The translations under genes were made by a program, and so were the position numbers. A stretch of 64,000 nucleotides of DNA from Leptotrichia sp. oral taxon 212 (GTDB taxonomy: Bacteria > Fusobacteriota > Fusobacteriia > Fusobacteriales > Leptotrichiaceae): positions 1,833,126-1,897,125 of the forward strand of contig NZ_CP012410.1 of assembly GCF_001274535.1 (NCBI RefSeq), in the 5' to 3' direction. The stretch's first letter is position 1. Every line of letters begins with the position of its first letter. The notes below the pieces were generated by a model, which worked only from the letters and a program-made list of their open reading frames with translations, made no database searches and had not been told where the DNA came from. This document shows, in pieces, positions 1-12,536 of the stretch.

Positions 1-1479
1 TCATTAATTCAATTAATTCATTCATTTCTTTTCTTATCTTTATTTTGTCTTCATAACTGGATATTTTTATTTTTAATTTTTTAAACAATTCAACATATTT
101 ATTTTCATTATACAAATTTATTGATTCATATATCAAATCTAACTTTTGTAAAATTTTATCTCTATTTGAAGTCGATTCATATTTTTCAGTAAGTCCATTA
201 AATTTATAACCTAATAATGAGTCTTTATTTATAAAACTATTTTTTATCTTCCCCCATTCTATATCTTTTATTTTCTCAATTTCTTTTTTGACTTTATATC
301 TACTTGTTCCAAAATATTCTTTTTTATTTTTCCTTTTCCTGAAAATATTGGAAATTTCTCTATAATATAACCAAAATTATTAGTATCTTCATCTTCAGAA
401 ATTTTTTTCTCTTTTAATTTAGATATTAATTTACTATAAATGAAATCATTAGTATATAGATTGTATAGTTCTTTAAATCCAGAATTTTCAGCATTCAATT
501 TATGCGTTAATCTTAATTCTTTAGTGTTTAAGGTATTTTTAAAATCCCAATCGTTAAAAATATATGTTTTTTTTAATTCTTCAAGAATATTATTATTGCT
601 GTATATAAATTTAACATTTCCTTCTTTTATTTTACCAGTTTTTTCATCTATATTAGTTTCTTTCGTATTCTTTGAAGGGATTTGTTTAATTCCATCATCT
701 CTTAATTTATTTGTTAATTCTATTACTTTTAGTGAACTTCTTCTATTCTGTATTTTATTAATTCGTTTTAGACTATCATCTTTTATATTTCCTATACCTG
801 AATCATATATAGATTGCATAGAATCACCAAAAAAACCTATAATATTTTCTTTTTTACTTTTATTTATATGATTTAAAAATATATTTGCTACCTCTTCACT
901 TGTGTCTTGATATTCATCTATAAAAATAAAATTAGCATTATCTTTTAAAATATCACATAATTTAGAATATTTTTCAAACATCTTTTCCGCTATTAATAAA
1001 ATCTCATCATGTCCTATTTTGCTATCCTCTTCTGATTTCAAACTATAATATTCATCATATACAATTTCTGAATTTAAGAAATATTCTAAATTTATTTTCA
1101 TCTCATTTTTTTCCAGGTTATCTTTTGGTAAAGTAAATTTTTTATATTTTTCTTCTTCGCTATAAATTAATTCTATCATTGTTTCTTTTAATTCTTTTTG
1201 ATACTTCTTTATTATTTTCCATAAAAACTCATGTATTGTAGAAACAAATAATTTATCATTAGAAATTCTTGATTTTATTTCAGCAACAGCATTATTTGTA
1301 TATGTTATACAAATAATTGACTTATTTGGATATAATCTTCCGATTTCTTGAATTAACAAAACAAGTGAATGTGTTTTACCACTACCTGCCCCTCCTGTTA
1401 ATATGAAATTTTTTTTATTTTCTATGCACTGCAATATTTCTTTCACTTCATCTTCTATTTCTAATTTTCCTTCAACCAT
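1..1479 (-). CDS. gajB: GajB-like UvrD-family helicase of a Gabija system (frame change at ~320, 3' end outside window)
   Basis: Superfamily 1 helicase partner of the upstream OLD nuclease. From the chosen ATG (1479) the protein shows Walker A GGAGSGKTH (about residue 29), motif II DEYQDT and motif III GDSMQSIY. The ATG follows a GAGGGG ribosome site and overlaps the end of gajA by 19 bases; an upstream in-frame ATG at 1515 lacks such a site. The zero frame ends at 268. The -1 frame is open from about 320 to the window edge and begins EYFGTSRYKVKKEIEKIKD, which looks like the continuation of the same helicase. Together they give about 490 codons, close to the size known for GajB. The frame change falls on an A6G run (separate entry), so this is either a one-base indel that breaks the gene or a -1 frameshift. 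Gabija is inferred from the pair; the family match is from memory, not a search. Confidence 0.8.
319..325 (-). other. A AAA AAG slippery heptamer at the gajB frame change
   Basis: On the minus strand, zero-frame codons ATA AAA AAG contain the heptamer A AAA AAG, the same slippery site used in dnaX. A -1 slip makes the next codon GAA and enters the long open frame that continues the helicase. A purine-rich AGGAAAAGG lies about 7-15 bases upstream, where an SD-like stimulator would sit. I saw no obvious downstream stem-loop. A simple loss of one A from the run would give the same picture. Confidence 0.6.
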
Positions 1480-3509
1480 TCTAACCCCTCTTTTATATAT
1501 TTTGGTATTTTCCAATCACTGTAATTTTCATCACTACATAACAGAATTTCTATTGCAAAACTAGATTTTTTATTTATACATTTTTGAGTTAATTCATAAA
1601 AATCAATTTCTTCTTCATTTAATTTTTTTTGGTTTTTTAAACCTTCTGAAAATCCATTTTTATTTTCTTTTATAAAATCATAATTTATACTTATAAACGC
1701 ATCTTCAAAACTACTAGCTTGATAGCCTTCTTCCTTGACTTGATATGCAATCATTATTTCGCTACTACCACATTTTACTATTTTTTCTTTTTTAGATAAA
1801 GTTGCTATTTTTTTAAATTCATTATTTTTATTTTTAGATTTTAATGTTTCTCCTAAATAATTTTTTATAGAAAAATTTGTACTTTTTGTTGCTTCTACTG
1901 GATTACATTTTTCTGTTTCTCTTTTATTGTCTTTTGTAATCATCTCTTTAGCAGCATCTATATCTGTTATAATTAATACTTTTATATTTAAAAATTCTAT
2001 AAATTTCTTAAATATTTGTGCATAATTACCAATTTCTATAATTGAAATATTTTGAGATAACAATGGTAAAAATTTCTTTGTTTTATCTTCTAAATCAATT
2101 TTTTTCATCATATAAGGAAGCAGTATTCTTTCTGTAGTTCCTTCAACAAAAATAACTTTTTCAGAAAAAAATAACTCTGCATTATTTAATGTTAGATATT
2201 GTTTTAAAAATTTATATGCTTGTTCATCATCTTTATAATTTTCCTTTAAGATTTCTATATTTTTACTTTCTACTCCTTCATTATTTTTTACAAAATATCT
2301 TATATCATTAAAATTACATTCTGAAACTATATGTGATGAATGAGTTGTTATCAATGTTTGTAATTTAATACCGCTCTCTCTATAACTGCCTATTAATTTT
2401 TTTATGTTACGAATAAAAATATATTGTAATTGAGGATGAGTATGTGCTTCGGGTTCTTCAATATACAAAATATTTATATCTGAAACATTATTAATAAAAT
2501 CATTTACAATGTTTTCTATTTCAAATATCATTCCTATTAAATTTAAATATCCTAATCCATTATGATTTTCAGGAAGTTTTATTCTATTATAATCAAAAAA
2601 TAACCTACTACTACTTTTAAACAATTCTTTTTCTTGTATTTGTGAATTTATATAAATATTTATCTCATTACTATTTCCACTAAATTCTTTTATTTTACCT
2701 GTTATTCCAGAAAATATTCCTACTTGATTTTTGCTTTTCCCATTATATAAATTATTTAACTTTTCATCAGTATTTTCAATTGCCTGTATTAAATCATCAA
2801 ATTCTTTGTCATTTTTAGTTTTAGAAATATCAAAATATTTTTCGGATAATTTAGATAATGAATTTTCATTTTCTTTATTTGATACTTCTCTACTTGCTTT
2901 TATTCCATTAAAACTAATAACTCTTTTTATCTGATTTAAATTTGATATTTCTAATATTTCATTTTCCAAATAACTATTCGTACTTTTATTATATTTTAAA
3001 GCATACATTTCAAGATTGAAATATTTTTCAGAATTTTTTCTCATAAATTTTGTAAAATTATTTTTATCTCCTTTATTTTTTTTATTAAATTCTATCGATA
3101 ATTCTCTCAAATTATCTTCTTTACAGTTATAATTAAATTCTACAATAATATAGTTATTATCTTCATCTAAATCCATCATAAAATCTTGAATATTCCCATA
3201 AAAATCTTCTTTTGTATATTCTATAAATAATGTTAATCTTATTCCATATTCATTAATTTCTCTATTTTCTTTTAGTACTTGAAAATCTTTAGTAGTAATT
3301 TTTTCATAAATTTTATTTTGAAACTCTATGTTAAAATCGTCCCATTTGAAATTTTTCTTTCCTTGATTTAATAATTTATCCATTATTGCTAATACTGATG
3401 TCTTACCAGTATTATTTTTACCTATAATTAATGTTGTTTCATCTTTAAAATCTAATTTGAAATCTTTCAAAATTCTATAATTTTTAACTTCTATTTTTTT
3501 TAATTTCAT
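1461..3509 (-). CDS. gajA: GajA-like OLD-family ATPase/TOPRIM nuclease (Gabija)
   Basis: DNA-nicking nuclease subunit of a probable Gabija antiphage system. Residues 1-40 start an ABC-like ATPase with Walker A GKNNTGKTS (30-38); the signature region GLGYLNLIG is at 318-326 and Walker B ILYIEEPEAHTHP at 346-358. A TOPRIM nuclease domain follows, with the conserved glutamate in FVEGTTE (E456) and the DxD pair in TDID (D516, D518). At 682 residues it is longer than the best-known GajA (near 580), so it could also be called a class 2 OLD nuclease. The start follows AAGGGGA. It overlaps gajB by 19 bases, so the two are translationally coupled. A possible promoter lies just upstream. Confidence 0.85.
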   Translation of the reverse strand: MKLKKIEVKNYRILKDFKLDFKDETTLIIGKNNTGKTSVLAIMDKLLNQGKKNFKWDDFNIEFQNKIYEKITTKDFQVLKENREINEYGIRLTLFIEYTKEDFYGNIQDFMMDLDEDNNYIIVEFNYNCKEDNLRELSIEFNKKNKGDKNNFTKFMRKNSEKYFNLEMYALKYNKSTNSYLENEILEISNLNQIKRVISFNGIKASREVSNKENENSLSKLSEKYFDISKTKNDKEFDDLIQAIENTDEKLNNLYNGKSKNQVGIFSGITGKIKEFSGNSNEINIYINSQIQEKELFKSSSRLFFDYNRIKLPENHNGLGYLNLIGMIFEIENIVNDFINNVSDINILYIEEPEAHTHPQLQYIFIRNIKKLIGSYRESGIKLQTLITTHSSHIVSECNFNDIRYFVKNNEGVESKNIEILKENYKDDEQAYKFLKQYLTLNNAELFFSEKVIFVEGTTERILLPYMMKKIDLEDKTKKFLPLLSQNISIIEIGNYAQIFKKFIEFLNIKVLIITDIDAAKEMITKDNKRETEKCNPVEATKSTNFSIKNYLGETLKSKNKNNEFKKIATLSKKEKIVKCGSSEIMIAYQVKEEGYQASSFEDAFISINYDFIKENKNGFSEGLKNQKKLNEEEIDFYELTQKCINKKSSFAIEILLCSDENYSDWKIPKYIKEGLEWLKEN

Positions 3510-7610: not shown

Positions 7611-7722
7611 ATATATAATACTTCTTAATACAATTTAAAAAAAACAACATATAAATTATGAATTTAAAATTCAAATAATTACATGCTGTTATCAATATTA
7701 AATTTCAAATCAAACAAAAAAA

Positions 7723-7799
7723 TGGCGTCCCCGGTTGGACTCGAACCAACGACCCTCTGGTTAACAGCCAGATGCTCTAACCGGCTGAGCTACGGAGAC
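7723..7799 (-). tRNA. tRNA-Asn (GTT)
   Basis: A 77-base cloverleaf with encoded CCA. The acceptor arm is GTCTCCG / CGGGGAC (one G-T pair), the D arm GCTC...GAGC, the anticodon arm TCTGG/CCAGA with loop CTGTTAA-type holding GTT, and the T arm GTTGG-TTCGAGT-CCAAC; the discriminator base is G. It follows 5S rRNA after 12 bases and is the last gene of the rRNA operon. Confidence 0.97.
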
Positions 7800-7811
7800 G
7801 CAATTTTAAAA

Positions 7812-7926
7812 GTTTGGCGACGACCTATTTTCCCTGAACTAAGTCCAAGTATCTTGGGCGCTGGCAGACTTAACTTCCGGGTTCGGAATGTAACCGGGTG
7901 TATCCCTGCCGCCATAATCACCAAAC
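7812..7926 (-). rRNA. 5S ribosomal RNA
   Basis: About 115 bases with complementary ends (GTTTGG... / ...CCAAAC) and the conserved CCGAACCCGGAAGTTAAG core on the minus strand. It lies between 23S and tRNA-Asn in the normal order. Confidence 0.96.
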
Positions 7927-7989
7927 ATATATATTGCCATTTAATATAAGAGGGCAATGAGAAATAAATAGTATAAGTAAAAGAGCATT

Positions 7990-10905
<2,916 letters not shown>

Positions 10906-11033
10906 CTAAACTTAAGTTTCCTTCAGTTGTTACTCTTTTACCTACTATTCATTTCCCATTGTCCTCCGGACTCTTTTAAGACATTACAGAGGAAGTATAA
11001 GACAAGCATCATTCTTCTCCCTAGAAAGGAGGT

Positions 11034-12536
<1,503 letters not shown>

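What the first reader, a model, noticed from the sequence alone, without database searches (positions are those of the whole stretch)
268..1479. GajB helicase continues in the -1 frame across an A AAA AAG site
The zero frame ends at 268, but a 100-codon -1 frame that reads as the same helicase starts exactly at a dnaX-type slippery heptamer in the right phase (319-325), with an SD-like AGGAAAAGG upstream. Either a homopolymer indel broke an antiphage gene, the run is phase-variable, or a Gabija helicase is made by programmed frameshifting.
Basis: partly seen in the sequence, partly recalled or inferred. Interest (0 to 1): 0.72.

Follow-up and report, generated by a model that had tools for sequence, protein, structure and literature searches.

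The report
GajB frame broken by A-run contraction
A phage-defence helicase gene (gajB of a Gabija system) is split over two reading frames in this assembly because one run of A's is one base shorter than in an intact, nearly identical copy from a related bacterium; this is most likely a sequencing or assembly length error and not a programmed frameshift.

Summary
gajA (1461-3509, minus) and gajB (from 1479, minus) form an ordinary Gabija pair. The gajB zero frame stops at 268; the helicase continues in the -1 frame for 277 codons, to about 508 bases beyond the window edge. A genome of the same family (G016) carries the syntenic gajB as one open frame (662 codons), about 99% identical over 1.65 kb. 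The only gap between the two genes is one A in the second A run (window 283-289): A6 here, A7 there. No downstream structure supports frameshifting, and in-phase A AAA AAG is common and not avoided in this genome (201 in 800 kb). In the same 800 kb about eight other coding A runs show -1 breaks; the two checked (an mreB copy, the rho N-terminus) are intact in relatives. Best explanation: homopolymer undercall (about 0.60), then a real recent deletion (0.32). Programmed frameshifting and phase variation are unlikely.

The parts
1461..3509 (-). gajA, 682 aa, intact OLD-like nuclease (AAA_15 plus OLD-like TOPRIM)
   Evidence: PADLOC GajA PDLC00079 E=4e-233 over the full length; Pfam AAA_15 and OLD-like_TOPRIM
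268..1479 (-). gajB zero frame, 403 aa, helicase motifs I to III; ends early at TAA 268-270. The last codons after the break (289 down to 268) are out of the gene's true frame.
   Evidence: PADLOC GajB PDLC00135 E=7e-133, profile positions 6-361 of 603; Pfam UvrD-helicase
1..289 (-). gajB continuation in the -1 frame (part inside the window; it runs on to about window -508); carries helicase motifs V and VI beyond the window edge
   Evidence: PADLOC GajB PDLC00135 E=9e-65, profile positions 364-601 of 603; 98% identical to the intact G016 protein
283..289 (-). True site of the frame break: AAAAAAG (six A's; the intact relative has seven)
   Evidence: The only gap in the gene-length DNA alignment with G016; position confirmed
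319..325 (-).
332..340 (-).

Best explanation
The gene is an ordinary chromosomal gajB. In this assembly one A run (283-289) is one base shorter than in the intact gene, so conceptual translation leaves the gajB frame at codon 397 and stops at 268. The shortening is not programmed. Shown: the one-base difference, its position, and similar A-run breaks elsewhere in the assembly. Inferred: it is a homopolymer-length error of the assembly, so the organism probably makes normal full-length GajB that works with GajA as in other Gabija systems.
For: Intact, syntenic, nearly identical gajB in G016 with the run one A longer and no other gap; intact single-frame gajB in G080. About nine -1 breaks at coding A runs in 800 kb of this assembly, gajB included, all in the deletion direction. 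A copy of mreB is truncated only here among the family, and the rho N-terminal extension is split only here among 17 loci read. A/T runs of eight are scarce relative to runs of seven (0.23 and 0.25, against 0.34 and 0.33 in two relatives). The downstream frame is undecayed and 98% identical to G016. Residual errors of long-read-only bacterial assemblies are most commonly homopolymer-length errors (PMC8812927 abstract).
Against: No reads and no second genome of the same species could be examined, and the sequencing method is unknown. G010 shows A-run breaks at a similar rate, so the rate is not peculiar to this assembly. The run-length deficit could reflect base composition. A real deletion after a recent gene exchange fits the sequence equally well. 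The other breaks, except mreB and rho, rest on codon statistics only.
Confidence: 0.6

Rival explanations
1. A genuine, recent one-base deletion has inactivated gajB in this strain. GajA is intact but GajB ends before motifs V and VI, so the Gabija system is off.
For: The sequence as given. Defence genes are often lost, and A7 runs are mutable. The locus was recently exchanged between genomes (99% identity over about 1.65 kb, flanks about 85-92%), and the downstream frame has had no time to decay.
Against: Similar breaks occur in this assembly in conserved genes such as rho and an mreB copy, which points to a general cause rather than loss of one dispensable gene.
Confidence: 0.32
2. Programmed or tolerated -1 slippage at A AAA AAG (283-289), on the ribosome or in transcription, makes full-length GajB from the A6 gene.
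For: The heptamer is in phase, and a slip there would give exactly the relative's protein. A AAA AAG is among the most slip-prone heptamers in E. coli when stimulators are present (PMC4066793).
Against: The shift is not conserved: G016 and G080 need none. No downstream structure (z = -0.1 for the 87 nt from the heptamer on), no SD at a useful distance. In-phase A AAA AAG is frequent and not avoided. [quoted passage not shown] Single broken copies of otherwise intact genes are typically indels or errors (PMC3711429).
Confidence: 0.05
3. The A run is a phase-variable switch of GajB.
For: Two lengths (A6 and A7) are seen in two genomes, one off and one on.
Against: The run is short and ordinary: gajB itself holds runs of 7 and 8 that do not differ between the two genomes (codons 302 and 358), and coding runs of 7 or more A's number about 900 in 800 kb. 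Only two sequences were compared.
Confidence: 0.03

Closest known systems
Gabija (GajA OLD-family nuclease plus GajB superfamily 1A helicase)
   Same: Gene pair, order and both protein families; intact in G016
   Different: gajB is broken by one base in this assembly
dnaX-type -1 programmed ribosomal frameshifting (A AAA AAG)
   Same: An in-phase A AAA AAG at the break
   Different: No stimulators found, no conservation, motif as frequent as chance, and intact relatives need no shift
Singleton frameshifted genes caused by indels or sequencing errors (GeneTack classification, PMC3711429; homopolymer errors of long-read assemblies, PMC8812927)
   Same: A single broken copy with intact homologues, at a poly-A run, with similar breaks elsewhere in the assembly
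   Different: Nothing that was tested; reads could not be examined

Membership tests
Gabija | Adjacent gajA and gajB of the right families | tested here: met
Gabija | Complete GajB helicase in one frame | tested here: not met
   Split at 283-289 in this assembly; complete in G016
Gabija | Phage defence activity | not testable with these tools
   Needs plaque assays
Programmed -1 frameshifting | In-phase slippery heptamer at the frame change | tested here: met
   A AAA AAG at 283-289, but as frequent as chance in this genome
Programmed -1 frameshifting | Frame change conserved among homologues | tested here: not met
   G016 and G080 are single-frame
Programmed -1 frameshifting | Stimulator (SD about 10 nt upstream, or a downstream stem-loop or pseudoknot) | tested here: not met
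   No notable fold from the heptamer on; the SD-like site is 42 nt away and also present in the intact gene. Pseudoknots were not modelled.
Programmed -1 frameshifting | A -1 protein product | not testable with these tools
   Needs a reporter or mass spectrometry
Phase variation by homopolymer | Length heterogeneity among cells or isolates at an unusually long tract | tested here: inconclusive
   The tract is only A6/A7, ordinary for this genome; two genomes only, no reads

The most novel reading that the evidence does not exclude
A6 is real, and the many coding A-run -1 breaks in this family are tolerated because ribosomes slip on A AAA AAN, so that GajB, Rho and others are still made: lineage-wide translational rescue of homopolymer contractions.
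Probability: 0.04. Interest if true: 0.65.

Novelty: not a real feature. Interest (0 to 1): 0.08.

Why it matters
It does not change what is known of Gabija. Practically, it shows that this assembly should not be used to call gajB, rho or other genes broken without looking at reads, and that a slippery heptamer in a 32% GC genome is weak evidence for programmed frameshifting. If A6 proved real and full-length GajB were still made, it would be a case of translational rescue of a defence gene.

Tried and rejected
My own codon-statistics segmentation also put the switch near 321, so composition alone misplaces it. Downstream structure: none (the 60 nt past the true site fold slightly better than shuffles, -2 kcal/mol, z = -1.8, too weak to count). 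Preference of the A-run breaks for the slippery phase: about 7 of 9 by eye, which I judge near what the phases of such runs would give, so inconclusive. All breaks lie in sense-strand A runs and none in T runs, but A runs of 7 or more outnumber T runs about 6 to 1 in coding sequence, so this says nothing. Further copies: none in plasmids, only a 64-base match in phages, none in viral contigs; the scan of reference genomes gave only a 23% relative, and records near the window's own genome may be left out there. Literature on Gabija with frameshifting: no title among the 17 listed concerns a GajB frameshift (not read in full).

Full report
What is there. On the minus strand at the left window edge lie gajA (1461-3509) and gajB (ATG at 1479). 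PADLOC and Pfam match GajA over its full length (PDLC00079, E=4e-233). GajB matches in two pieces: the zero frame fits positions 6-361 of the 603-position GajB profile PDLC00135, and the -1 frame fits positions 364-601. The zero frame ends at 268-270. The -1 frame continues beyond the window to about -508, seen by fetching the flanking genome. The next gene downstream reads as aroA and the gene upstream of gajA as aroB; both names are mine, from the sequences.

Where the break is. Of 33 held genomes of the family, one relative (G016) carries gajB almost unchanged and in one open frame. Aligning the two loci shows a single gap within gajB: in TC-AAAAAA-G at window 283-289, where G016 has seven A's. 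A slip at 319-325 would replace 12 codons with ones unlike the relative's. The SD-like AGGAAAAGG is also identical in the intact gene and lies 42 nt from the true break. A more distant intact gajB (G080, 43% identity) is likewise one frame.

Is the heptamer evidence? The true break also sits in an in-phase A AAA AAG, and slipping there would give exactly the relative's protein. But in 800 kb of this genome 201 in-phase A AAA AAG occur in coding stretches, against about 178 expected from codon frequencies. The intact G016 gene itself holds 15 in-phase slippery heptamers, two of them A AAA AAG. Folding from the heptamer on shows no notable structure. In E. coli this heptamer is among the most efficient ones when stimulators are present (PMC4066793). 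In the GeneTack study, single broken copies of otherwise intact genes are attributed to indels or sequencing errors (PMC3711429).

Error or mutation? A codon-statistics scan of two 400-kb samples of this assembly, with 400-kb samples of two relatives as controls, found about nine frame switches at coding A runs, gajB and rho included, all in the -1 direction. Two besides gajB were checked against relatives. One copy of mreB is truncated only here: the aligned matches in the other 32 genomes lie in open frames of 344 aa or more, apart from one 282-aa match near a contig start; this genome has two further intact copies. The N-terminal extension of rho is split only here among 17 loci read, while G014, another member of the family, shows a break inside rho itself. 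A/T runs of eight are scarcer relative to runs of seven here (0.23 and 0.25) than in the relatives (0.34 and 0.33). This pattern fits undercalled homopolymers. It is not proof: G010 shows similar breaks at a similar rate, the sequencing method is unknown and no reads could be seen. I therefore put about 0.60 on an assembly error and 0.32 on a real recent deletion.

If the deletion is real. The truncated GajB keeps motifs I to III and loses the C-terminal motifs (QHSVKGSEF, YVCCTRAKE), which superfamily 1 helicases need (established knowledge of the family, not tested here). GajA and GajB are each essential for defence in vivo, though GajA alone cuts DNA in vitro (PMC10781630). Gabija would then probably be off.

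Evolutionary setting. The aroA-gajB-gajA-aroB stretch is 93% identical between the two genomes, and about 1.65 kb covering most of gajB and its 3' flank is about 99% identical, while most other shared regions in the samples are about 65-85%. This points to recent exchange of the Gabija locus between the two lineages, with the A6/A7 difference arising, or being introduced as an error, afterwards. That is inference from identity alone.

Noticed in passing
window -1892 to 4727 (G000:C1:1831233-1837852; G016:C1:1903060-1909654): The aroA-gajB-gajA-aroB stretch is 93% identical to a genome placed in another genus, with a core of about 1.65 kb at about 99%, while most other shared regions are 65-85%: looks like recent exchange of a Gabija locus by recombination.
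   Followed up: partly
G000:C1 about 2030837, minus strand (outside the window): The N-terminal extension of rho is split by a -1 frame change at an A run here; it is one frame in the 16 relatives read.
   Followed up: partly
G000:C1 about 1933674, minus strand (outside the window): One of three mreB copies is truncated by a -1 frame change at A AAA AAG; orthologues in relatives are full length.
   Followed up: partly
G000:C1 about 1901263-1901297, minus strand (just outside the window): A gene that reads as a D-Ala-D-Ala carboxypeptidase appears split at an A run in the -1 direction; codon statistics only, not compared with relatives.
   Followed up: no
G010:C1 about 231515, 363193 and 453695; G014:C1:1635980-1637323: Other assemblies of the family also show frame breaks at A runs (G010) or inside rho (G014), so A-run breaks are not peculiar to this genome.
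   Followed up: no
window about 7693-12535 (G000:C1:1840818-1845660): Stretch about 88% identical to G016, with a second copy at G000:C1:1991607-1994724; probably an rRNA operon, which gives spurious ORFs there. Not checked with RNA models.
   Followed up: no
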